Shown here: positions 3,391 through 42,654 of the stretch, piece after piece | Numbering within the stretch: position 1 is the stretch's first letter | Layout of the letters: each line of letters begins with the position of its first letter | IMG/VR virus record: IMGVR_UViG_3300032342_000015 | Location: 1 to 48,218 of that record | DNA from: a virus | Length of the DNA: 48,218 nucleotides | Strand: one strand, 5' to 3' | Position numbers and translations under genes: made by a program | Notes under the pieces: model-generated | The model's input: only the letters and a program-made list of their open reading frames with translations | What the model was told of the DNA's origin: nothing | Databases searched by the model: none

Positions 3391-3621
3391 TCAGGGGTTC
3401 TTGAGGCGCCGCATCACGGCGCGGTAGACGGTGGGGCAGGTCTTCGCCAGGTGGTCGAGCGTCGCGCGCGCCTGGTCGCGCTTGGACTGTTCCTCGGGCC
3501 GATGGGTCTTGCCGAAGCAGAAGAACTCGATCAGGTCAGACTGCGCGCGGATGATCTTCTGCGCGAGTGGGCGCGACAGCAGCGCGTCGTCGAAGCCGTC
3601 GTTGTAGCGCGACGTCGACAT
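3391..3621 (-). CDS. hypothetical protein, 76 aa
   Basis: The chosen ATG at 3621 overlaps the stop codon of the SNF2 gene by one base (TGATG), so translation is probably coupled. The product (MSTSRYNDGFDDALL at the start) is helical and basic at the C-terminus (YRAVMRRLKNP). No family recognised; it may assist the helicase next to it, which is inference from position only. Confidence 0.6.
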   Translation of the reverse strand: MSTSRYNDGFDDALLSRPLAQKIIRAQSDLIEFFCFGKTHRPEEQSKRDQARATLDHLAKTCPTVYRAVMRRLKNP

Positions 3622-5645
3622 CAGAACGGGCACTCCTCGGTGATTGCGATCTCGACGTCGTTCGTGGGGTCGGCCTTGTCGTTGTCAATCAGCATCGCCG
3701 CGAGCGCCGCGGTCGCCGCTGCGAGTTCCGCCTGCGCTGCCACGATCTTCGCGGTGTCTGCCGCGAGCGCCGCGGTATCGACCGTCGCGACCGTCGACGT
3801 CACGACCTCGGTCGCGCCAGCGCGCGCCGCGTCGATCGACGCCTCGATGATCTCGGTCTTCTCGGCGAGCAGCTCCGCGACGCGCCGGTCGAGCGCGTGA
3901 GCCGCCACGAGGCGGGTGATGACCACGCCGCGCGACTGGCCGATGCGATGGATGCGGTCCTGCGCCTGGCGGTTCAGGCTCGGGGTCCACTCCTCGTCGA
4001 TGAACAGCGAGTTGGACGCGCGGGTCAGGGTGATCGCAACGCCGCCTGCCTTGATGCTGCACGCGACGCCCTTGAGCTTGCCGGCCTGGAACGCATTCTC
4101 GATCTCGGTCTTCTTCTCCGAAGACGTTGCGCCCGTGATCTTCGCCCAGCCGTCGCGCGCCCCGAGGACATCGAGCGGCGCAAGGTGCGCCGAGAACACG
4201 ACGACGGGCTCGCCCGCCGACTCGAACGACTCGACCAGCTCGATCGCCGCGTCGAGCTTCGCGGTCGCGAGGGCCGCACGCGCCGCCGAGATCTGCTCGA
4301 AGCCGGGCGTCGCGTTCGCCGTCGCCGCGACCTTCGCCATCGCCTTCGCGAAGTCGACGCCGTTCGCTTCGAGGAGCGCGAGCGCCTGGTCGCACAGCTT
4401 CTTGGTCGACGCCGACAGGCCGTTGACCTCGATCGTGCGGACGGTCTTCTCGGGCAGCTGCGTGAGGACTTCGGACTTCACGCGGCGCAGCATGATGTTC
4501 TTGAGGCACTCGGCGACCTGCGCCGTCGGCTTGCCCCACTCGACGCCGTAGCGGCCGTCGTTCGCGTTCCACATGCGCTTGAACGCGTCGTAGCCGCCGA
4601 ACACTTCGCGCCCCGCGCCCATCGCCTGGAGCAGCGCCCACAGCTCGGGCGCGTCGTTCAGGATCGGCGTCGCCGTCAGCAGCCACACGCGGCCACCGTT
4701 CGCGCGTGCCGCCTGGGACAGCGCGCGGAACCGCGAGGTGCGCTGCGCGCTCGACGACTTGAGCGCGTGCGCCTCGTCGGCGATGATGACCGTGCCCGCG
4801 GGCGCGGTCGCCAGCTCGACGGGCAGGATCGCGGGGTAGCCCTTCTGCTTCGCCGCCTCGCCGGGGAGGATGTCGTAGTTGATGACGACCATCTCACCCG
4901 CGACCGGCCACCGGAACGACCCGCGGCCCGACAGCGCGACCGGCGTCAGGTCGGGACGGAACCGCGCCGCCTCGCGGACCCACACGCCCTTCGCGACGGC
5001 GGGGCAGATCACGAGGATGCCGGCACCGACGGGCGCCGCGCACAGCGCCTGCACCGTCTTGCCGAGGCCCATGTCGTCGGCGAGCACCGCGGTGGTACGG
5101 GGCGCGATCCACTCGATGCCGACGCCCTGGAAGCCGAACAGCGAGAGGCCGCGCGCACGGAGGGCAGCGTCGATCTGCGCCGCGCGACCCTGCGCCGCGG
5201 TGACCTCGGAAACGGCCTGAGCTGCCCGCGCCTGCATCGAGGCAACCAGCTCGGGCGAGACATCGCAGGTGAAGCCCGCCGCCTGGAGAGCCGCGATCAG
5301 CGCGGGAGCCTTGGACACGTCGCAGATCTGGCCGTTGTCAGCCTTGGAGTAGGACGCGCCCGCGGAGCGGGTGACCGCCAGGTACGTCTCGAACGAGCCG
5401 TTCAGGCGGCTGACGGGCGCGCAGAGCACCCGGCCGCCCGCGAGCACCAGGCGGATGACCAGCGCCAGGACAGCCTTGGCCGCGGTCTGGGCCGGGGACG
5501 TGCCGTGGGCCGCGCAGAGGACGATCCAGCGGCCGTTCAGCTTGGTCGCCTCGCCCGCCTGGGCAGCGACGCGGGTTCCGCAGGTTCCGCAGCTTCCGGG
5601 GTAGTTGTTGCGCATGTCCTTGAGACGGGACCCCCGGTCCGACAT
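3621..5645 (-). CDS. SNF2-family DEAH-box helicase/translocase
   Basis: A 674-residue superfamily 2 ATPase. Visible motifs: a possible zinc site (C19, C22, C44, H47); Walker A DDMGLGKT (190-197); DEAH (290-293); LTATP motif III (323-327); and the SNF2 C-terminal signature QDRIHRIGQ (562-570). This family moves along duplex DNA and strips or remodels proteins; phage members are linked to recombination-dependent replication or repair. The tail after about residue 600 is Ala-rich. Start ATG 5645 lies directly after the repeated leader TTTACTCTCGCTTTG. It is one of two SNF2 helicases in the window, and the two are diverged from each other. Confidence 0.92.
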   Translation of the reverse strand: MSDRGSRLKDMRNNYPGSCGTCGTRVAAQAGEATKLNGRWIVLCAAHGTSPAQTAAKAVLALVIRLVLAGGRVLCAPVSRLNGSFETYLAVTRSAGASYSKADNGQICDVSKAPALIAALQAAGFTCDVSPELVASMQARAAQAVSEVTAAQGRAAQIDAALRARGLSLFGFQGVGIEWIAPRTTAVLADDMGLGKTVQALCAAPVGAGILVICPAVAKGVWVREAARFRPDLTPVALSGRGSFRWPVAGEMVVINYDILPGEAAKQKGYPAILPVELATAPAGTVIIADEAHALKSSSAQRTSRFRALSQAARANGGRVWLLTATPILNDAPELWALLQAMGAGREVFGGYDAFKRMWNANDGRYGVEWGKPTAQVAECLKNIMLRRVKSEVLTQLPEKTVRTIEVNGLSASTKKLCDQALALLEANGVDFAKAMAKVAATANATPGFEQISAARAALATAKLDAAIELVESFESAGEPVVVFSAHLAPLDVLGARDGWAKITGATSSEKKTEIENAFQAGKLKGVACSIKAGGVAITLTRASNSLFIDEEWTPSLNRQAQDRIHRIGQSRGVVITRLVAAHALDRRVAELLAEKTEIIEASIDAARAGATEVVTSTVATVDTAALAADTAKIVAAQAELAAATAALAAMLIDNDKADPTNDVEIAITEECPF

Positions 5646-8329: not shown

Positions 8330-8713
8330 ATGACGAAGCGCTTCTATCGATTCGTCAACGATCACGGTGGCCTGTTTCGGATGACCGAGACCAACTACCG
8401 TCGCTACCTGCTTGCCGGCACTCGGACTGACAAATCCGCCGATCCTGAGGAGTACGGCGTCTGCATCGGGGACGTGCTCACGGTCACCAAGTTCACGACG
8501 ACCGAGTTTTCCGACGAGTACAACCACGAGGCTCGGCGGGTCGACAAGGCGCTCGCGATCGTCTGCCCCAAATGTGGGGCTGATGCCGGGAAAGCGTGCC
8601 TCTCGCTCGACAAGCGCTGGCAAGCTGAGAAGTGCCGGACGCTCGGCATCCTCGACAACGGCTGGCGCAAGACTCCGCACCGAGAGCGCGTACAGATCGC
8701 GAAGGGTCGGTAG
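8330..8713 (+). CDS. phage zinc-finger-domain protein, 127 aa
   Basis: Start ATG 8330 directly follows the previous stop. The C-terminal part CPKCGADAGKAC...HRERV matches the C-x2-C-G-A-x2-G-x2-C...H-x2-R layout of the small phage zinc-binding domain (Phage_zn_bind type) often appended to phage proteins. The N-terminal part (FYRFVNDHGG, VCIGDVLTVTKF) is of unknown family. Confidence 0.65.
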   Translation: MTKRFYRFVNDHGGLFRMTETNYRRYLLAGTRTDKSADPEEYGVCIGDVLTVTKFTTTEFSDEYNHEARRVDKALAIVCPKCGADAGKACLSLDKRWQAEKCRTLGILDNGWRKTPHRERVQIAKGR

Positions 8714-10013: not shown

Positions 10014-10315
10014 AGATCCCAATCTCGCGTGCTGCGCTCGCGGCGATGACGCTCGACGAGTACCGCACGCACTATCCCGAGGTCGCGTCCGGGGAAGTCC
10101 TCGAAGCGATGTACGACGACCGCCTCGTCGCGTTCGACGAGCAGGTTGCGATCTCTGTGCAACTGGTCGATGAACTCGCCGACGAGGAAGTCATCGCCGA
10201 CATGGACGAACAGTGCCCGCTGTGCGGTGGCCCGCAGCAAATCCTCGGCAAGCTCGGGCAGCGCGTGCACCTGCGTTGCCGTAACTGCGGCGCCGATACC
10301 AACAGCGCGAGCTAG
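10010..10315 (+). CDS. zinc-ribbon hypothetical protein, 101 aa
   Basis: ATG 10010 overlaps the preceding stop by four bases. Acidic N-terminal helix region (LDEYRTHYPEVASGEVLEAMYD), described by its ends only, is followed by a C-terminal zinc ribbon: CPLCGG...LRCRNCGAD. Its TAG stop shares the tetranucleotide CTAG with the stop of the convergent C39-like gene. Confidence 0.65.
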   Translation: MKIPISRAALAAMTLDEYRTHYPEVASGEVLEAMYDDRLVAFDEQVAISVQLVDELADEEVIADMDEQCPLCGGPQQILGKLGQRVHLRCRNCGADTNSAS

Positions 10316-10911
10316 CGCTTGCGACGGCGGTAGATCACGATGCCGGTGCCTGCAGCGGCCAGCAGCACGACGACGCCCGTGATCGCGTACGCGATGGTCC
10401 GCTTGCGCGTCACTACAGGCGCCACCTCGCCGAACTGCTGACGCTTCTGCGGTGTCATGACGATGACACCGACGCGATCGCGGAACTTCCAGCGCTTGTC
10501 CAGCTCGTGACGCGTCAACGTCCGACGGTTACCCTTGACGTTCGGGTCCATGATCTCGACGAGGCTGGGCTTGACGTCGGTGGCGATGACGAAGTGCCCC
10601 TGGCCAGGCCGGGTGAAGCTCTGGATCGCGAGGATCACGGGCACGTCGCGCGACGTGTACTGCTCCAGCTCGTCGATCGAGTCGAATTGGCGCGTCTGCG
10701 CCCAGTACCCTCGCGCGCGGGCCGCTGCTTCGACCTGATAGCAAGTCGAGCCCGTCTTGGGGTCGACGCCAACCTCGCGGATCAGATCCCGTTCGTCGGC
10801 AGGTTCGTCCCAGTGACCCATCACGGCCTTGAGGGCAGCGGCGCCGCACGAGTACGGCTGGATTTGCTGGTACGGCTCGACGTCGCCGAGGTGGATCGCT
10901 GCTGCGAGCAT
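10312..10911 (-). CDS. C39-like cysteine peptidase with C-terminal membrane anchor
   Basis: Start ATG 10911 gives 199 residues; an upstream start would run into the divergent gene. The Cys motif QPYSCGAAALKAVMGHW (Cys22), His106 in GQGHFVIATDV and Asp122 in MDPNVKG make a papain-like C39 triad. C39 enzymes normally cut double-glycine leaders. The C-terminus has one transmembrane helix (about 172-194) and a short basic tail YRRRKR, so the catalytic domain sits on one face of a membrane. No secretion ATPase is linked. A role in processing virion or host envelope proteins is inference. Confidence 0.75.
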   Translation of the reverse strand: MLAAAIHLGDVEPYQQIQPYSCGAAALKAVMGHWDEPADERDLIREVGVDPKTGSTCYQVEAAARARGYWAQTRQFDSIDELEQYTSRDVPVILAIQSFTRPGQGHFVIATDVKPSLVEIMDPNVKGNRRTLTRHELDKRWKFRDRVGVIVMTPQKRQQFGEVAPVVTRKRTIAYAITGVVVLLAAAGTGIVIYRRRKR

Positions 10912-15011: not shown

Positions 15012-17486
15012 TCAGTGCAACGAGTAGTTGACGATCTCGTTCGGGGCGATCCAGCACGCGCGACAGCCTTTGCCGTCAGGTCCACCGAGACCCGGCGGGG
15101 CAACAGCTTTGCGGCACGTGTGGCCCTTGTCGTCCGTCGCGTACGCCTGGCAGTTGTGTACGAGGAGCCCGCCTGCAACGAATTCAGGGTTCTCTCCAGC
15201 GACTTCCAGATCCCATGTGGGAACGTTGAGCCCGTCATTCACGATTCGCCGAACCGCGACAGTCCGCGTACGTGTGCGTTCCGGAACCTGTAACGCAGCG
15301 GCGACTGCGCGCTTTTCATCGTTCAGAATTTGGGCTTCCTGTGCGATGCGAAGCGCGGCAGCACTACGACCGAGAATCGTGATGAGTGTCTTGTGTGGTT
15401 CGCGGTGCACTTCCGAGAACGAGCATCGCGCGCCCAGAGAAGACCACAACAACCCCAGCTCCGTCGCAAGTGCCGGAGAGGTCGTGTACATGCAGACGTC
15501 ACCACCCCCCTCGCGACGCACCTTCACGGACCCGTCTGCGCTGAGGAATCCTGCAAGGAACCCGAGCTGTGCACTGCGTGGTGCTTGTAGAAGTCCCGTG
15601 GGAAGGCGCCGTGCCGATGAACCAACGCCGTGACCGTAACCAAACGCGTGCAGGTACCGTGTGAGTTGTGCACTTGACCAGATGGCACGATGCGCGACCC
15701 GTTCATGATCAACAAGATCGTTCGCAGCCATCACGCGCTCATCGAAGCGCGCACCGTAGCCGATCCACGATTTGATGACGTGGTCGAGCTTTTGGAGATC
15801 CATCAACTTTGCGGCACCAACACCGACTTCAACAGAACCGTCAGCGCGAAAATGTGCATCACCTGCGAAGTAGCCGAGGACGGCCCCGAGATCGCGCGTC
15901 CAGTGTTCAGGGAACGTTGCGACGGTCGATGTGCTACCTGCCCCACGACGATCAAAGGTGCGATCCCATTCCGATACCGCAACAGGTGTTTCGTGTGAAG
16001 CACCTGCATCTTCGGGCATAGCGATCAACTTTGTACCCTCGACGAGTTCGCCTGCTTCAATCCAGTCTTCAGCGCCCGCGAGGCGGTGATCTGGTGTGAC
16101 ACGCAAACGATGCCCGCCAGTTGTTTCGACGACGAGGGTGGCTTTGACACCGCGAGGTTCAGCACGGACGACGTCGCGCCAACCGTCACGTGTCATAACA
16201 CTGTCGCCGATCTTGACGTTCTCGATGTTGACGAGCCCTTGCTGTTGCACGTGAATTCGCGTGCCTTCGGCAACGCAGTTCCACGTGTAGCGCAGGTCGG
16301 GGCCGGTCATCTTCGGCGGGAACCGCTTCGCGCGATCGTAGACGTACTGCTCCAGCTCGGGTTCCATGCCGAGGTTCTGTTCGACTTGCAGAACCGTCGT
16401 CGCACCTGCCCAACCGGGACCGAGATTCTCCGGACCAGCTGCGTTCACTTCGTACGCACTTGGACGGATGATCAGGTTGTTGGCGCTGCGCGCGTGCGGC
16501 GCATTGATCTCGTTGACAAGATCAATGCCCCAGCTCGTGGCCCAGATCCGCGACGGCGCCCAGAACGTGATGTCCGGTAGCCGATCTGCGATCTGCTTCC
16601 ACTGCTTCAGGTACTTTGGGCTGAAGAAATCTCCTGAGTCATGGATGCGGAAGAACCGTCGACCTGTTGGCTCAGGTGGCAGTGGTTGCACCTGTTCGAC
16701 GATCGTGATCTCACCCGTCTCGGGGTTGGTGATGGCCTGCTCCTCTTTGACGGTGCCGCCATTGAGCAGGTAGTCGACGTTGTTGATCGCGTAGACCATC
16801 GTCTCGATGAACGCGGTTGACCGACTACCGTCAGGTGCAGGTACTTCGAAGTCGATCGCCTGACGCGCCCACAGGAAGCGCAGTGTCTGAGCGAACTGGA
16901 CCTGACCTGTCGAGTACTGCCCGCCGGTCGCGTAGCACTGCTCGCAGATCGCCAGCGCGAGATTGACGGGCGTGCTCTGCGGACGCTTGAGGCCGATGTT
17001 GACCAACCGCGCATTCGCGCTGCGATCTCCGGGCGGTGCGATCGACTGTCCCGCGATGGCACCGGGGCATGCACCGCCGATCTGGGGCGCGCCTGCGGGG
17101 ATGCTCCAGCTCGGGGCGTTCATCTTCGATGTCCACGACAGGAGTTTGTACTGTTGGACGTTGGGATCCGTCGCTGGATTCCATGCGGGACCGGGACCGA
17201 TTGGCCGATCGAGAACGAGGTAGACGTTCCTGGTGTCCTTGTCCTTGATGTTGCCAGGGTGCACGGTGAACTGCAGATCCTGCAAGCTCTCGAACACAGC
17301 CTCGCGCACGAAGACCAGCCCAAGCAGGCCGGCATGCGCGTCGGAGAGAACAGCCTGTGGTGCAGGACACGCAGGATGATCTTCACCGAACTCGTCGCCG
17401 CTCAACGAGCCGACGCACATGTCGTAAGCGCGCTCGATCGGCGTGACGTCTTCGGGAACTTCGAGATGTGGAATGATCGCGGCCAT
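15012..17486 (-). CDS. GP88-like phage protein interrupted by an intein
   Basis: Precursor of 824 residues. The host part (1-403 and 779-824) carries RFFRIHDSGDFFSPKYLKQW and ITFWAPSRIWA, the signature of the phage gene-product-88 family (found in actinophages and others; biochemical role unknown), and ends with a Cys cluster (HTCRKAV, GKGCRACW). The CxxC and C-terminal cysteines suggest a metal site that the intein would split. After splicing the host protein is about 449 residues. ATG 17486 is two bases after the neighbour's stop, in the repeated junction TAGTCATGG. Confidence 0.8.
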   Translation of the reverse strand: MAAIIPHLEVPEDVTPIERAYDMCVGSLSGDEFGEDHPACPAPQAVLSDAHAGLLGLVFVREAVFESLQDLQFTVHPGNIKDKDTRNVYLVLDRPIGPGPAWNPATDPNVQQYKLLSWTSKMNAPSWSIPAGAPQIGGACPGAIAGQSIAPPGDRSANARLVNIGLKRPQSTPVNLALAICEQCYATGGQYSTGQVQFAQTLRFLWARQAIDFEVPAPDGSRSTAFIETMVYAINNVDYLLNGGTVKEEQAITNPETGEITIVEQVQPLPPEPTGRRFFRIHDSGDFFSPKYLKQWKQIADRLPDITFWAPSRIWATSWGIDLVNEINAPHARSANNLIIRPSAYEVNAAGPENLGPGWAGATTVLQVEQNLGMEPELEQYVYDRAKRFPPKMTGPDLRYTWNCVAEGTRIHVQQQGLVNIENVKIGDSVMTRDGWRDVVRAEPRGVKATLVVETTGGHRLRVTPDHRLAGAEDWIEAGELVEGTKLIAMPEDAGASHETPVAVSEWDRTFDRRGAGSTSTVATFPEHWTRDLGAVLGYFAGDAHFRADGSVEVGVGAAKLMDLQKLDHVIKSWIGYGARFDERVMAANDLVDHERVAHRAIWSSAQLTRYLHAFGYGHGVGSSARRLPTGLLQAPRSAQLGFLAGFLSADGSVKVRREGGGDVCMYTTSPALATELGLLWSSLGARCSFSEVHREPHKTLITILGRSAAALRIAQEAQILNDEKRAVAAALQVPERTRTRTVAVRRIVNDGLNVPTWDLEVAGENPEFVAGGLLVHNCQAYATDDKGHTCRKAVAPPGLGGPDGKGCRACWIAPNEIVNYSLH
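15153..16277 (-). mobile_element. LAGLIDADG intein in the GP88-like gene
   Basis: 375 residues, precursor positions 404-778. Starts CVAEGTRIHVQQQG, has the block B-like TGGHRLRVTPDHRL, two dodecapeptide motifs (LGAVLGYFAGDAHF and LGFLAGFLSADGSV), and ends with TWDLEVAGENPEFVAGG, LLVHN, then Cys779. All splice-essential residues (Cys1, block B His, terminal HN, Cys+1) are present, so it should be active. Confidence 0.88.
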
Positions 17487-17488
17487 GA

Positions 17489-17749
17489 CTAGCGTCTTCC
17501 CTTCGAGCTAGCGCACGCCTTTTCGATCATGCGCCAACCTTTGGCTGTCGGTTGGTAACGTTCCGGTCCCGGTCCACCTGTTGCCGTCCAACCGATGAGT
17601 TTGTTGCGCTTGAGCCACGACAGCATCGTCTTCCGATCCTTGATCTGCACGTATTCACGCAGCTCACTGGCCGTGAACGAACGGTTGTGTGCCACCGTGC
17701 CGATCTTGCAGATCGACGTGACGGAAGGCTTGTAGCGACCTTTCGCCAT
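17489..17749 (-). CDS. winged-helix-like DNA-binding protein, 86 aa
   Basis: Short protein with a helix-turn-helix pattern (FTASELREYVQIKDRKTMLSW then LKRNKLIGW) and a wing-like GPGPERYQPTAKG, ending in the basic CASSKGRR. It may be a transcriptional regulator of the small-gene array. ATG 17749 follows TAG by two bases; codons AAG AGG AGT at the end of the previous gene supply its Shine-Dalgarno. Confidence 0.6.
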   Translation of the reverse strand: MAKGRYKPSVTSICKIGTVAHNRSFTASELREYVQIKDRKTMLSWLKRNKLIGWTATGGPGPERYQPTAKGWRMIEKACASSKGRR

Positions 17750-17751
17750 GA

Positions 17752-18246
17752 CTAGCGACTCCTCTTGCGGCGGCGGCGCCCGATCGCAGCTCCGGCGTCA
17801 TCGCGCACGCAGTGCATCGTGAACTCGTACGCTGCATCCTTGATCGCCGTTGCGGGCTTGTAAGCCTTGCCGCCAGCGTGCGTGCTCGCGTCGTACCGCC
17901 CGATCGCTTGCTGCATCTCGGCGTAGGACATCTGCGCAGCCGTACAGCGACCGTTGCGCGCCTTGTTGACAGTGTTCGCCGCGGCGTACTCGATGTCGCG
18001 CGATGCCCGTGAAGCCTCGGTGGTGTGTGTAGCTGCAGAGCTGCCGAGGCCGCTCCGCTTGGCGCTGACCTTGACGATGTTGCGCTCGTCAGCGATGCCC
18101 GGTGTCCCGTGCTTGCCACCCATGTTGAGCACCCAGCCACCGTGGCTGGAGCGCATCACGGCGCGCCCGGTGCGCTCCTTGCCGAACCGATCGACGATGG
18201 TGACACGGTCCCCAGGACGAACGTCGTTGATTGACTTGCGCGCCAT
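17752..18246 (-). CDS. basic-tailed hypothetical protein, 164 aa
   Basis: Start ATG 18246. N-terminal KOW/SH3-like strand (INDVRPGDRVTIVDRFGKE) followed by helical segments and a strongly basic end GRRRRKRSR. The R-rich end is encoded by CGC codons plus AAG AGG, the latter forming the ribosome site of the next gene. Likely nucleic-acid binding (inference). Confidence 0.65.
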   Translation of the reverse strand: MARKSINDVRPGDRVTIVDRFGKERTGRAVMRSSHGGWVLNMGGKHGTPGIADERNIVKVSAKRSGLGSSAATHTTEASRASRDIEYAAANTVNKARNGRCTAAQMSYAEMQQAIGRYDASTHAGGKAYKPATAIKDAAYEFTMHCVRDDAGAAIGRRRRKRSR

Positions 18247-18248
18247 GA

Positions 18249-18530
18249 CTAGCGCTTTCCCTTCCGACGGCAGCGCTTGCCACGACAGCGCTTGCCAAGG
18301 CCGCCAGTGCTCCAACACTCGTTGCGATTGCACTCGGCGACGACCTTCTGCATGCCCGGCAGCCCGTGCGTGACCTTGCAGATCGCGTTCGGGAACTGCT
18401 TCGAGCACTTGTGGCCTGCAGCGAGCGCGGCACTTTCTGAGTTATGGAAGCTGCGCTTCCAGTGCGCGGGACCGCTGACGACGAAGCGATCGGATGAGCC
18501 GAGGGACTTCTTGCGACGACGCTTAGCCAT
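18249..18530 (-). CDS. Cys- and basic-rich hypothetical protein, 93 aa
   Basis: Starts MAKRRRKKSLG at ATG 18530 and ends KRCRGKRCRRKGKR, so both ends are basic. Internal cysteines (C42, C51, C67, C72) may bind metal. Follows its neighbour by a TGATCATG junction. Function unknown. Confidence 0.65.
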   Translation of the reverse strand: MAKRRRKKSLGSSDRFVVSGPAHWKRSFHNSESAALAAGHKCSKQFPNAICKVTHGLPGMQKVVAECNRNECWSTGGLGKRCRGKRCRRKGKR

Positions 18531-18532
18531 GA

Positions 18533-18769
18533 TCAGCGGTTCCTCTTCTTGGTGCTGTTACGACGACGCTTACGTCGTCCAAAGCTCGTGGGACACGCCG
18601 TGGGCGTGACAGGTGTCTCGACATCGTGCAGCGGCATCGGCCGCTTGCCACCGGGGATCAGGATCGTGTGGTGTGCATCGACTTTTCGACGGGTCGCGCG
18701 TTTCGCGCCGGCATCGAACGCGAAGCACGCGCCAACAGGCAGGTCTTCGAATGCGGGACGGCGCGCCAT
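18533..18769 (-). CDS. basic-tailed hypothetical protein, 78 aa
   Basis: ATG 18769 (MARRPAFEDLPVG). The core contains FEDLPVGACFAF and a short strand set, then a Pro-rich link and the tail GRRKRRRNSTKKRNR. No family recognised. Confidence 0.65.
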   Translation of the reverse strand: MARRPAFEDLPVGACFAFDAGAKRATRRKVDAHHTILIPGGKRPMPLHDVETPVTPTACPTSFGRRKRRRNSTKKRNR

Positions 18770-18771
18770 GG

Positions 18772-19023
18772 CTAGCGCTGCCTCTTCGCGCGCAGCTGAC
18801 ACGAGCTGGCGCGAAGCCGCCAGTCCTTCTTGTACTTGCGCATCAGCGCCGCACGCATGTTGTGCTCGGCGCCGGCACAGCCATGCTGCTTCTCAGCGTT
18901 GACGTCGACGTAGAGATGCTCGGTGCCTGTGGTCGGCACACGGAGCCCGGCGCGCCGTAGCTTACGCCCCCACTCGACGACGTTGACGGGTCCGACCCAG
19001 ACTTTCAGTCGATACGTCGCCAT
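18772..19023 (-). CDS. basic-tailed hypothetical protein, 83 aa
   Basis: ATG 19023. N-terminal beta-alpha-beta (YRLKVWVGPVNVVEWGRKL then EHLYVDVNAEKQHG) resembles a small ferredoxin-like fold, followed by a helix and the end SSCQLRAKRQR. Function unknown. Confidence 0.65.
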   Translation of the reverse strand: MATYRLKVWVGPVNVVEWGRKLRRAGLRVPTTGTEHLYVDVNAEKQHGCAGAEHNMRAALMRKYKKDWRLRASSCQLRAKRQR

Positions 19024-19275
19024 CTAGCGCCTACGCCGACGTCCCAAGCCCGTGTTCGGGCAGCTGCACCGACCGGCGATGAAGGTTTCTGCGTCTTTCC
19101 GGCCCAGTGCCGTATAGATGCCGTTGCCAGGACCGAAATAGTCCTGCTTGTGCCGTGTGGGACCGTCGTAGAATCGATAGCGCGTGACGCCGTCACCAGG
19201 CGCGTACGTCGCGACGGACAGGCCACACCGATCAGCCTCGGCAGCAAGCGATGAAGTTTTGCGTTTGGCGGCCAT
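19024..19275 (-). CDS. basic-tailed hypothetical protein, 83 aa
   Basis: ATG 19275. Begins MAAKRKTSS, has a strand-rich middle (YAPGDGVTRYRFYDGP, AETFIAGRCSCPNTG) and ends GLGRRRRR. Stop and next ATG share bases (TAGATGG). Function unknown. Confidence 0.65.
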   Translation of the reverse strand: MAAKRKTSSLAAEADRCGLSVATYAPGDGVTRYRFYDGPTRHKQDYFGPGNGIYTALGRKDAETFIAGRCSCPNTGLGRRRRR

Positions 19276-19306
19276 GCGCGGTTCCTTTGATCACTGGAGT
19301 AGGAAG

Positions 19307-19347
19307 CACAAAGGCCACGTACGACGCTATCGCACGTGGCCTCTGTG
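19307..19347. other. strong inverted repeat in a leftward gap
   Basis: Two 14-base arms (19307-19320 and 19334-19347) pair with one mismatch around a 13-base loop. No T-run follows on either strand. It separates the 19370 gene from the polybasic-tail operon and could be an mRNA processing or stability site or a factor-aided terminator. Confidence 0.6.
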
Positions 19348-19369
19348 TAGGACTAGCGCCGAGGAGCGC

Positions 19370-19603
19370 TTAGCGCTTCTTCGCGCGGATCGCGCAGCTC
19401 TTGCGACCCTTGGCCCAGCGGTAGCCCTTCTTGAGCCGACCGTTGGCCTTCACGCCGGCAGCGCTGCAGCCGGTTGCCCGGCCACCGAGCCCGCGGGCCT
19501 TGCGACGACGGCGACCCACGAGGGTGGGCAGCTGGCCCATGTGCTTGCGGCGGCGACGACGCTTACCGAGACCGTCGCCCAGAGTTGGGGTTTCCATGTT
19601 CAT
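19370..19603 (-). CDS. highly basic small protein, 77 aa
   Basis: ATG 19603 (MNMETPTLGDGLG); a second ATG at 19597 is possible. About a third of the residues are Arg or Lys (GKRRRRRKHMG, GRRRRKARGLGG, IRAKKR end). The GxGxR and Gly-rich turns resemble small nucleoid-binding or virion-packed basic proteins, but no family is recognised. It starts the leftward run of basic-tailed genes. Confidence 0.65.
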   Translation of the reverse strand: MNMETPTLGDGLGKRRRRRKHMGQLPTLVGRRRRKARGLGGRATGCSAAGVKANGRLKKGYRWAKGRKSCAIRAKKR

Positions 19604-19775: not shown

Positions 19776-20489
19776 ATGCCAGCCCTCAAACCACGCGAAA
19801 ATCCGCGCAAGGTGTTCAAGCACCGGCACCGCGAACGTGGTCCCAGTCGGCTGTTCACGTTCGATGATCTTGCAGCCGCTGCGACCGAGGCACCCGCAAC
19901 CACGCGTTCAAAGCTCCGTACGACTACCGATGCTCGCACGGCCGCGCTGTACATCACCGAGGCATTGACGCGCCGATCACAGAAGCTCACTGATGACGAA
20001 GCTGTCCAAGTCCTCAAGGGGCAGGCGACATTGAAGGAGTGGCGAGGGCGCTGGCCGCGGTTCGATTTGTACCGCTGCGGTTACCCGAGCTGTCCAGCCA
20101 CGATGATGGAACCGGGGCTCTGCGCACTTCACGGTGGAACGCTTCAACCGTTCGCCAAGATCGTCGATGACCACTTCATGATCCTGACTGGCCGTGAGTA
20201 CACGCCGCTCTGCCGCGTGATCTTCGGTGTCATCGGCTCGGGCGCAGTTGAACACGTAGATAAAAACCCGTGGAACAACCATCCGGACAACCTGATCGTG
20301 CCTGTAGATGGTCACGTACGTTCATCGCGTCGTAACCGTTGGTCGTACGGATACCGCGAGCTGGCGACGCTGTTCGATCTGTCTGAAGACAGTACCCGGC
20401 AAGTGGTGTCGCGAGGAATCGTCAACCCAGCATCGCTCGACAGTGTGACGAGCTTCTGGTGGCTGCGGCAGGACCGTCGACGACTGTGA
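19776..20489 (+). CDS. HNH-type homing endonuclease-like protein with HTH
   Basis: The segment VEHVDKNPWNNHPDNLIVPV followed by GHVRSS matches the HNH_3 pattern (H-x-D-x2-x2-NN-x2-NL). The C-terminal part (YRELATLFDLSEDSTRQVVSRG) looks like a helix-turn-helix that reads DNA, as in phage free-standing HNH nucleases. Two CxxC-like positions (CGYPSC) may bind zinc. Single gene on the plus strand between two leftward blocks, as expected of a mobile gene. Confidence 0.7.
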   Translation: MPALKPRENPRKVFKHRHRERGPSRLFTFDDLAAAATEAPATTRSKLRTTTDARTAALYITEALTRRSQKLTDDEAVQVLKGQATLKEWRGRWPRFDLYRCGYPSCPATMMEPGLCALHGGTLQPFAKIVDDHFMILTGREYTPLCRVIFGVIGSGAVEHVDKNPWNNHPDNLIVPVDGHVRSSRRNRWSYGYRELATLFDLSEDSTRQVVSRGIVNPASLDSVTSFWWLRQDRRRL

Positions 20490-20493
20490 GCCG

Positions 20494-20766
20494 TTAGAGC
20501 GGTGTCCGCAGTCGACCGTGACACGCCGGACACACACGAATGGCGCGACCGCCACGCTGGATGTACGTGCCTTTTTGTGTCGGCAGCAGGCAGCCACAAC
20601 CCATGCACAAGATCTTCTCGACTCCGTGACGGTGCGCCATCTCCCAGGAGATGTGCCACATGCCCGTCAATGACGCTGCGACGAGAGCGTCACGCAGGGT
20701 CTTGAGCGTGGTGCCGTCGGCAAAGACGTGGTTATCGTCACGGATGATCACGCGCGGCATGCTCAT
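20494..20766 (-). CDS. zinc-ribbon hypothetical protein, 90 aa
   Basis: ATG 20766 overlaps the stop of the methylase by four bases. N-terminal strand-turn-strand (PRVIIRDDNHVFADGTTLK) then a zinc ribbon: CMGCGCLLPT...VCPACHGR. Probably cotranslated with the methylase. Function unknown. Confidence 0.65.
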   Translation of the reverse strand: MSMPRVIIRDDNHVFADGTTLKTLRDALVAASLTGMWHISWEMAHRHGVEKILCMGCGCLLPTQKGTYIQRGGRAIRVCPACHGRLRTPL

Positions 20767-21665
20767 GGCGTCCTCAGGAGGTTTGCATCTGACGTGATCA
20801 GAACTGCGGGCCGCAACCCGCGACGCGCGGCAGTGGCGCCGACGACGTGGCGTTCGCTGATTGGCGTGACACGCGCCCAGGCGTATAGCTCACGAACGCG
20901 CTCGTGATCGCTGTTCGAGGCAATGATGATGGCACCGCGGTTGTGTGCTTCGGTGAGTGCCGCCGCGAGCGCGAAGTGGTCGTCCTCGGTGAACCCGCCG
21001 GCTGTGTAGCCGCTGAACGTGTCGTAGTACGGCGAATCGGCGTAGACAACGTCGCCGGTCTGCGCCGTTGCGATCGTCTCGCGAAAATCAGCCACACGGA
21101 GGTCTGCGCGCTTGAGCGCTTGTGAGACGGCCGCGAGTGCGTCCTCATCCGGCAAGCTCGCGCGCGAGCGGTCACCGCCGTGCGGAACGTTGAACTTGCC
21201 GTCACCGTTCTCACGATAGAGGCCGTTGAAGCCAAACTTGTTAAGGTAGAGGAACCGCGCAGCCGCAAACACGACGCTGGGAGGCTCCGATGCACGGACC
21301 TTCAGGTAGCTTTCCTTGTCAGTGCCGCGATCGACGAGTGTTTGCAGTGCCCACGCGACGGCCGCAGGCGTCTTCCGGATCGCCTGGTACATGTTGATCA
21401 GCGGCTTGCAAATGTCGCTGAGCAGCATGTTTGACAGCCCGAGGTCGAGCGCGATGGCTGCACCACCCAAGAACGGTTCGATGTACCAACCCCCAGTGAC
21501 GGCAAGCCGTTCATAGATGATCGGCGCCAGCATCGGAACGAGCCAACGCTTGGAGCCAACCCACTTGAGCGGCGGCGTACAGTGGGCACGTGGCGGCGCC
21601 AGCGGCTCGGTGCCGGGCACGACCACCTGTCGCGGGTCGGGCTTCGATTCTTGAACGGTCATCAT
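20763..21665 (-). CDS. D12-class DNA adenine N6-methyltransferase (Dam-like)
   Basis: 300 residues. Motifs in family order: PLKWVGSKR (32-40), SAM-binding EPFLGGAA (63-70), NKFGFNGLYREN (142-153) and the catalytic motif IV, here DSPY (210-213) instead of the usual DPPY. The target is likely GATC or a related adenine site, as for Dam, but this cannot be read from sequence. Phages use such enzymes against host restriction. Starts at ATG 21665 behind AGGGGAG in a CTAGGGG leader. Confidence 0.9.
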   Translation of the reverse strand: MMTVQESKPDPRQVVVPGTEPLAPPRAHCTPPLKWVGSKRWLVPMLAPIIYERLAVTGGWYIEPFLGGAAIALDLGLSNMLLSDICKPLINMYQAIRKTPAAVAWALQTLVDRGTDKESYLKVRASEPPSVVFAAARFLYLNKFGFNGLYRENGDGKFNVPHGGDRSRASLPDEDALAAVSQALKRADLRVADFRETIATAQTGDVVYADSPYYDTFSGYTAGGFTEDDHFALAAALTEAHNRGAIIIASNSDHERVRELYAWARVTPISERHVVGATAARRGLRPAVLITSDANLLRTP

Positions 21666-41795: not shown

Positions 41796-42340
41796 AGCTC
41801 CCAAGCGACTTGATCGTTGCACTGACGTCCGAAGAGATTGCCGATATTCGCCGTGTAGCTCACGAACGTCCCGGTTTCCTTCCAAACTTGTACAACAAAA
41901 CACGACGTGACCTGACACGCAGTCAAATCGAAACGGATCGCATCGGCCTCACAGGCGAGTACGCCGTCGCGAAGCTGTTTGGATTAAGTCTCGATGCGTG
42001 CGGCCTACGCTTGAAGGGGCTGCAGTTGGACGGAGGCCACGACATGATGTTGCCAGACGGCAAGACGGTACAGATCAAAGCCATCGAAGTTCATACAAAC
42101 CCGAATCGTCCCTACTGGTATTCGTTGGAGGGTACTGACCCGATGGAGTTCACTGCAGACGTTGGCATCATGGCCTACGTTCTTCATCGCACACCAGGTC
42201 AGGTGAAGATCCCCGGGTTCATCACACGTGAGCGTTTCATCACCGAACATGTCCTTGCCAACCTCGGAACGGGTTTACGGGCTGCTGTGGCAACCTGCCG
42301 TTTCGACCCGATTGAACTGCTCTTGAAAGGGCAACCGTGA
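41792..42340 (+). CDS. PD-(D/E)XK-like nuclease candidate, 182 aa
   Basis: GTG 41792. Core: GLTGEYAVAKLFGL (conserved Glu), GGHDMMLPDGKTVQIKAI (D...QxK), then VGIMAYVLHRTPGQVK, as in the 24778 gene product. Helical N-terminus with a basic region (NLYNKTRRDLTRSQ). Confidence 0.55.
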   Translation: MKLPSDLIVALTSEEIADIRRVAHERPGFLPNLYNKTRRDLTRSQIETDRIGLTGEYAVAKLFGLSLDACGLRLKGLQLDGGHDMMLPDGKTVQIKAIEVHTNPNRPYWYSLEGTDPMEFTADVGIMAYVLHRTPGQVKIPGFITRERFITEHVLANLGTGLRAAVATCRFDPIELLLKGQP

Positions 42341-42654
42341 AGCACGCAGCTCGCATGAAACACGCCCGGTGCCGGCCACCGAAGGCTCACACCAAGACGC
42401 TGCGACTCCGTGAAGACGGTCGCTGGGTCAACGACAACGGCGATCCCGGCCTCGCGTTCATCCGTGCCGCAGACGAAACGGGCGACGCAGCAACCATCTG
42501 GGCCGCGAACTGCAAGTGCACGTGCTACCTGGACTGCCCCGTCTCGACGGCGTTCGCGCGCGCAACGGCGCTGGGGTTCAGCAGCGCATCGGTGATCGGC
42601 GTGCGCGCGTCGCCGCGCAAGCGTGTCGTGCGTCGGAGGCGGGCAAAGAAGTGA
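42337..42654 (+). CDS. basic-tailed hypothetical protein, 105 aa
   Basis: GTG 42337 overlaps by four bases. Contains a cluster CKCTCYLDC and ends SPRKRVVRRRRAKK, echoing the basic-tailed array at 17.5-19.6 kb. Function unknown. Confidence 0.65.
   Translation: MKHAARMKHARCRPPKAHTKTLRLREDGRWVNDNGDPGLAFIRAADETGDAATIWAANCKCTCYLDCPVSTAFARATALGFSSASVIGVRASPRKRVVRRRRAKK

What the first reader, a model, noticed from the sequence alone, without database searches (positions are those of the whole stretch)
17489..19603. Array of tiny leftward genes with polybasic C-termini and a repeated junction
Seven consecutive genes end in Lys/Arg tails and most join by TAG-TC-ATG-GC. The tail codons AAG AGG form the Shine-Dalgarno of the next gene, but the CGC-coded Arg runs go beyond this need. 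The genes may form a set of small nucleic-acid-binding or virion-packaged proteins. Similar tails appear at 42654 and in the C39-like and TM proteins.
Basis: partly seen in the sequence, partly recalled or inferred. Interest (0 to 1): 0.7.

Follow-up and report, generated by a model that had tools for sequence, protein, structure and literature searches.

The report
Arginine-tailed small protein array in phages
A group of large, apparently undescribed phages carries a row of tiny, fast-changing genes whose otherwise unrelated proteins share an arginine/lysine-rich tail kept by selection, probably a general tether to DNA or RNA, while the tail's own DNA also holds the start signal for the next gene.

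Summary
Seven leftward genes (17489-19603) end in Lys/Arg-rich tails: summed net charge of the last 12 residues is +41, against 14.8 +/- 4.5 by permutation. The exact TAG-TC-ATG-GC join occurs in three of seven; three are variants and g1 has none. The window is a fragment of an apparently undescribed group of large phages (one relative is 221 kb). Nine related contigs were recovered. Six have syntenic arrays; three have arrays with mostly different bodies but the same kind of tail. In this group 9.4% of genes (149/1585) have a strongly basic C-terminus, against 0.9% (3/332) in six control phage regions.

Ribosome-site need does not explain the tails. They are as common on genes without a coupled neighbour (9.0%) as on coupled ones (10.0%). 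Tail codons differing by one base keep Lys/Arg in 216/232 comparisons (33% expected). Bodies differ (winged-helix, Sm/SH3-like barrel, helical bundle) and are recombined; unrelated genes share one junction sequence.

Best reading: a modular set of fast-evolving small proteins with a selected polybasic nucleic-acid-binding tail whose DNA doubles as coupling signal. Virion packaging is untested. The C39/TM example belongs to a separate class (membrane anchor plus arginines).

The parts
19370..19603 (-). g1, 77 aa, Arg/Lys-rich throughout (GDGLGKRRRRRKHMG...LVGRRRRK), tail ...CAIRAKKR; no coupled gene follows
   Evidence: homologues in 6 relatives, all ending basic
19024..19275 (-). g2, 83 aa, tail GLGRRRRR
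   Evidence: homologues in G001 and G006
18772..19023 (-). g3, 83 aa, tail RAKRQR
   Evidence: homologues in G001, G002/G003, G004, G008
18533..18769 (-). g4, 78 aa, tail FGRRKRRRNSTKKRNR
   Evidence: six genomes with the same kind of tail
18249..18530 (-). g5, 93 aa, basic N-terminal arm MAKRRRKKSLGSS and tail GLGKRCRGKRCRRKGKR
17752..18246 (-). g6, 164 aa: small beta-barrel (N) fused to helical bundle (C), tail GRRRRKRSR; the two domains are separate or differently fused in relatives
17489..17749 (-). g7, 86 aa, winged-helix-like, short tail SSKGRR
17741..17766 (-). junction g6/g7: AAGAGGAGTCGCTAGTCATGG (tail codons, ribosome site, stop, start); the same 20-mer ends unrelated genes in G001, G009 and G010
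15012..17486 (-). g8, conserved gene after the array (phrog_1392; short matches to hypothetical proteins of mycobacteriophages), used as anchor to find syntenic arrays; carries an intein
20763..21665 (-). Dam-like DNA methyltransferase upstream of the array, conserved flank

Best explanation
A cassette array of small, mostly globular proteins, each with a selected Lys/Arg-rich C-terminal tail (some also with a basic N-terminal arm). Shown: the array, the tails, their conservation by charge with codon turnover, their enrichment across the phage group, domain shuffling, and the shared junction. Inferred: the tails are general electrostatic tethers that hold the different domains on phage or host nucleic acid (DNA, possibly RNA) during infection. 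Because the tail codons also contain the ribosome-binding site of the next gene, each cassette carries its tail and the coupling signal together, so recombination at the common tail-stop-start sequence can swap cassettes without breaking the operon (inferred). Fast turnover of the bodies suggests host-directed or counter-defence roles (inferred).
For: Group-wide enrichment 149/1585 vs 3/332 in controls, p = 6e-10, and against permutation. Tails equally common without a coupled neighbour. One-base codon differences keep Lys/Arg in 216/232. Tails conserved in six syntenic arrays and present on different bodies in G004, G006, G007 and a MAG contig. No TM segment in any array protein. g7 winged-helix-like; g6 N-domain weakly Sm/Hfq-like and its tail low-confidence in the model. 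Same 20-mer junction at unrelated genes; g6 domains separate or swapped in relatives. Array genes diverge faster and vary in presence more than the flanking genes.
Against: No binding data. g3 and g7 have weak tails in the window. The fold matches are weak (best E 0.007 for g7, 0.02 for g6). Basic tails could bind any acidic partner (membrane lipids, ribosomes, acidic phage proteins). G004's homologue of the g6 C-domain lacks a strong tail.
Confidence: 0.5

Rival explanations
1. The tails are a packaging tag: the small proteins travel in the capsid with the DNA and are injected early, like the T-even internal proteins, a diverse set of defence-countering proteins sharing only a targeting sequence.
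For: Same architecture: many different, fast-evolving small bodies with one common terminal tag. T-even internal proteins are described this way (PMC3012670). Basic tails would fit DNA-bound packaging.
Against: No virion data. The T4 signal is a conserved sequence directing entry into the scaffolding core, not a charge tail. The array sits near methylase and replication genes, not head genes.
Confidence: 0.2
2. By-product of Shine-Dalgarno need: in tightly coupled genes the ribosome site of the next gene must lie in the last codons, and AAG/AGG/GGA codons give Lys and Arg.
For: AAGAGG or similar is in the tail codons of g3-g7 and most joins are coupled.
Against: Tails equally frequent on uncoupled genes (9.0% vs 10.0%); control phages with coupled genes lack them (2.1%); CGN codons upstream of the ribosome site; Lys/Arg kept despite codon change; g1 tail kept in seven genomes with no coupled gene in the aligned cases.
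Confidence: 0.08
3. The tails bind ribosomes or RNA and serve takeover of translation or RNA metabolism.
For: Arg-dominated tails; Sm/Hfq-like barrel in g6.
Against: Fold match weak; g7 looks like a DNA-binding fold; no RNA-binding family matched.
Confidence: 0.12
4. The tails bind acidic membrane lipids or set membrane topology.
For: True in kind for 22 of 149 basic-tailed proteins in the group, including the window's C39-like protein.
Against: No array protein of the window has a hydrophobic segment (highest 19-residue mean hydropathy 0.54); 127 of the 149 lack one.
Confidence: 0.06

Closest known systems
T-even phage internal proteins (IPI etc.) with capsid targeting sequence (PMC3012670)
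   Same: Diverse, fast-evolving small phage proteins sharing only a terminal targeting peptide
   Different: Here the shared element is C-terminal, defined by charge rather than sequence, shows no sign of being a cleaved leader, and occurs on about 9% of genes including larger proteins; virion location unknown
Translational coupling of tightly packed genes with the ribosome site inside the upstream gene (PMC12548453)
   Same: Stop and start lie 0-2 bases apart with a Shine-Dalgarno-like site in the tail codons
   Different: The protein tail is selected in its own right and is present where no coupling exists
Small DNA/RNA-binding proteins with disordered basic tails (general knowledge: histone-like and ribosomal proteins)
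   Same: Globular body plus disordered Lys/Arg tail
   Different: Many unrelated bodies in one operon share the same kind of tail and are shuffled; no sequence family matched
MarR-type / Sso10a-like winged-helix proteins (g7 only)
   Same: Predicted helix order and fold
   Different: No sequence-family match above cut-off
[quoted passage not shown]
   Same: A way to concentrate chosen phage proteins with phage DNA
   Different: The known determinant is a surface patch, not a terminal signal; no shell gene was looked for here

Membership tests
T-even internal proteins | Conserved terminal targeting peptide shared by diverse bodies | tested here: inconclusive
   A shared terminal feature exists but it is C-terminal and conserved by charge; the T4 CTS itself was not searched for
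T-even internal proteins | Packaged in the capsid and injected | not testable with these tools
   No virion proteomics available
Shine-Dalgarno/coupling by-product | Tail confined to genes whose end must carry the next gene's ribosome site | tested here: not met
   10.0% of coupled and 9.0% of uncoupled genes have the tail
Membrane-anchored proteins with Arg-rich end (positive-inside) | Hydrophobic segment before the arginines | tested here: not met
   No array protein of the window has one; the C39-like protein 10312-10911 does
Winged-helix DNA-binding proteins (g7) | Winged-helix fold | tested here: inconclusive
   AlphaFold2 pLDDT 78; Foldseek best E 0.007, TM 0.6-0.75 to MarR/Sso10a-type proteins
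Sm/Hfq-like proteins (g6 N-domain) | Sm fold and ring assembly | tested here: inconclusive
   Foldseek best E 0.02, TM about 0.45 to the target; assembly not tested
Nucleus-forming phages (Chimalliviridae) | Chimallin shell protein | not tested
   No search for it was run

The most novel reading that the evidence does not exclude
The basic C-terminus is a transferable delivery tag: these phages attach it by recombination to many unrelated, rapidly evolving effector domains, so that a set of counter-defence proteins travels with the genome (packaged and injected, or concentrated on replicating phage DNA). It would be a C-terminal, charge-based counterpart of the T4 capsid targeting sequence.
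Probability: 0.15. Interest if true: 0.85.

Novelty: new variant of a known kind. Interest (0 to 1): 0.55.

Why it matters
About one gene in ten in this phage group carries the same kind of tail on unrelated bodies, and selection keeps the charge while the codons change. That points to a general addressing or tethering principle for phage small proteins that one tail-GFP fusion could test, and it gives a simple sequence handle for finding fast-evolving phage proteins that homology searches miss. It also suggests how protein tail, ribosome site and recombination seam can share the same 20 bases, so that gene cassettes can be exchanged without loss of expression.

Tried and rejected
Sequence families: no Pfam match above cut-off and no PHROG match better than E 0.01 to any of the seven array proteins; none in the PDB by profile for g1, g3, g4. 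Isolate relatives: none for g3, g5, g6 in 50,697 phage records. Cellular genomes: no g8 relative; a DNA polymerase alignment found one MAG contig. Alignment scans with the g6 C-domain and g4 added no new phage. A scan for the tail GRRRRKARR found nothing, but the pattern had one Arg codon too few for the known copies, so it says nothing. Of ten hits of a junction pattern only L051 and L053 led to relatives. Shine-Dalgarno by-product as sole cause: rejected. Membrane anchoring: rejected for the array. Chance or high-G+C artefact: rejected by permutation and by control phages of 49-64% G+C. Literature: no paper on such tails found in the held library.

Full report
What was checked. The seven genes are tightly packed open frames on the minus strand with clear homologues. 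Every one ends in a CGC Arg codon. The summed net charge of the last 12 residues is +41, against 14.8 +/- 4.5 when each protein is permuted, and no permutation reached it. The effect is carried by g2, g4, g5 and g6; g1 is basic throughout, and g3 and g7 have short tails. The join TAG-TC-ATG-GC is exact after g5, g6 and g7, nearly so after g3 and g4, shortened after g2, and absent after g1, so 'most' is generous.

What the window is. No isolate phage resembles the array proteins tested. Metagenomic virus contigs gave nine related records: G001 (sister, 31 kb), G002 and G003 (one phage type: 79 kb and 221 kb), G004 (41 kb), G006 (138 kb), G007 (97 kb), G008 (91 kb), G009 (196 kb) and G010 (65 kb). 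The gene coordinates of G002 run across both ends of G003, so G003 looks close to a complete 221-kb genome. The window is therefore most likely a fragment of a similarly large phage. A 9.8-kb contig binned in an Actinomycetes MAG carries a 39%-identical DNA polymerase and a row of basic-tailed genes; this is a weak host hint only.

Conservation. The array lies before the conserved gene g8 in the window, G001, G002/G003, G008, G009 and G010, with the Dam-like methylase upstream where the sequence was read. Tails are kept in each family: g4 ends FGRR(K/R)... KR(S/N)R-like in six genomes, the g6 C-domain ends GRRRRRKARR-like in four of five, and g1 ends basic in seven. G004, G006 and G007 have arrays with mostly different bodies and again basic tails, some repeated on different proteins: GGAQLGRARRRRRR twice in G004, and GLGYVYQGTxQRSWKASRRKGR-type on several proteins in G007.

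Not chance, and not just the ribosome site. In nine records with the duplicate phage left out, 149 of 1585 called genes have a net charge of at least +5 in the last 12 residues, against 3 of 332 in six control phage regions called the same way (Fisher p = 6e-10). Permutation predicts about 1-4%. Genes with a same-strand neighbour within 12 bases have such tails in 10.0% of cases, genes with none within 30 bases in 9.0%; in the first four control regions the figures are 2.1% and 0.8%. Where aligned tail codons differ by one base, Lys/Arg is kept in 216 of 232 ordered comparisons, with 33% expected for random changes; for two- and three-base differences 70/97 and 148/174, with 8% expected. These comparisons are not independent and alignment favours matching basic residues, so I rely on the direction and the one-base figure. 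The simple gene caller includes some false genes, in the controls too.

Two classes. In 22 of the 149, a membrane segment lies near the arginines, among them the window's C39-like protein and an M23 peptidase of G003. Membrane topology can explain these. The other 127, including the array proteins, have no such segment.

Modularity. g6 of the window is two domains. The first is fused to a different second domain in G003 and stands alone elsewhere; the second is a separate gene in G001, G003, G004 and G010. The linkers resemble the tails (basic residues next to GLG). A Gly within three residues before the first triple-basic run is found in 56 of 126 tails, with 21% expected. The exact 20-base string AGAGGAGTCGCTAGTCATGG ends g6 in the window, an unrelated gene in G001, and g4 in G009 and G010. 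Between the window and G001, five of the seven array genes are 53-84% identical while g8 is 98% and the methylase 93%; G009 and G010 keep recognisable matches to only two and four of the seven. Cassette exchange at a shared seam would give this; recombination itself is inferred.

Folds. AlphaFold2 gives g7 a winged-helix-like model (pLDDT 78) whose best PDB matches are MarR-type and other DNA-binding proteins, E 0.007 at best. g6 is modelled as a small five-stranded barrel, weakly like Sm/Hfq, plus a high-confidence helical bundle and a low-confidence tail. The bodies differ; the tail is what they share.

Mechanism. An Arg-dominated, probably disordered terminal tail conserved by charge rather than sequence, on bodies of different fold, is most simply an electrostatic tether to nucleic acid. 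I give this 0.5. [quoted passage not shown] Ribosome or RNA binding and membrane binding are less likely. The Shine-Dalgarno explanation is true of the DNA but does not account for the protein.

Verdict. Its function is inferred, not shown.

Noticed in passing
window 15153-16277 (-), inside g8 15012-17486: An intein of about 375 residues with LAGLIDADG-like stretches interrupts g8 (between ...YTWN and CQAY...); G001 and G002/G003 have g8 uninterrupted.
   Followed up: partly
window 10312-10911 (-); G003 genes at 8708, 62201-66957, 94828, 159726-162019, 173649: A class of proteins starting ML(A/T/Y)....G and often ending in a membrane segment plus RRRR; the window member is C39-peptidase-like, one G003 member is an M23 peptidase. 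The shared N-terminus may be a signal of its own.
   Followed up: no
L053:2298-2450, 2454-2693, 3485-3751 (G007): Three different small proteins end in nearly the same 22 residues, GLGYVYQGTxQRSWKASRRKGR, the clearest case of a swapped C-terminal tag.
   Followed up: partly
window 19776-20489 (+): A plus-strand gene with an HNH-like motif (HVDKNPWNNHPDNL) lies against the direction of its neighbours just upstream of the array; it is conserved at 87% in G001 and 71% in G003.
   Followed up: no
window 42337-42654 (+): 105-aa gene with conserved HxxCRPP...WxxNC core and a basic tail in the window, G008 and G009; G003 has RRPRAGRTLL instead.
   Followed up: yes
G003: L027:9645-14957 and L029:2285-2678: tRNA genes including five tRNA-Leu in a row, tRNA-Arg(acg) and tRNA-Lys(ttt).
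   Followed up: no
L098 (JAKOVA010000047.1), 9834 bases: Contig binned in an Actinomycetes MAG holds a relative's DNA polymerase and several basic-tailed genes; possible host hint.
   Followed up: partly
L006:2157-2912 and near-identical L007, L008: The barrel domain of g6 (GGWVLNMGG.HGTPGIAD) also occurs at the end of a protein in the structural gene cluster of unrelated AT-richer phage contigs.
   Followed up: no
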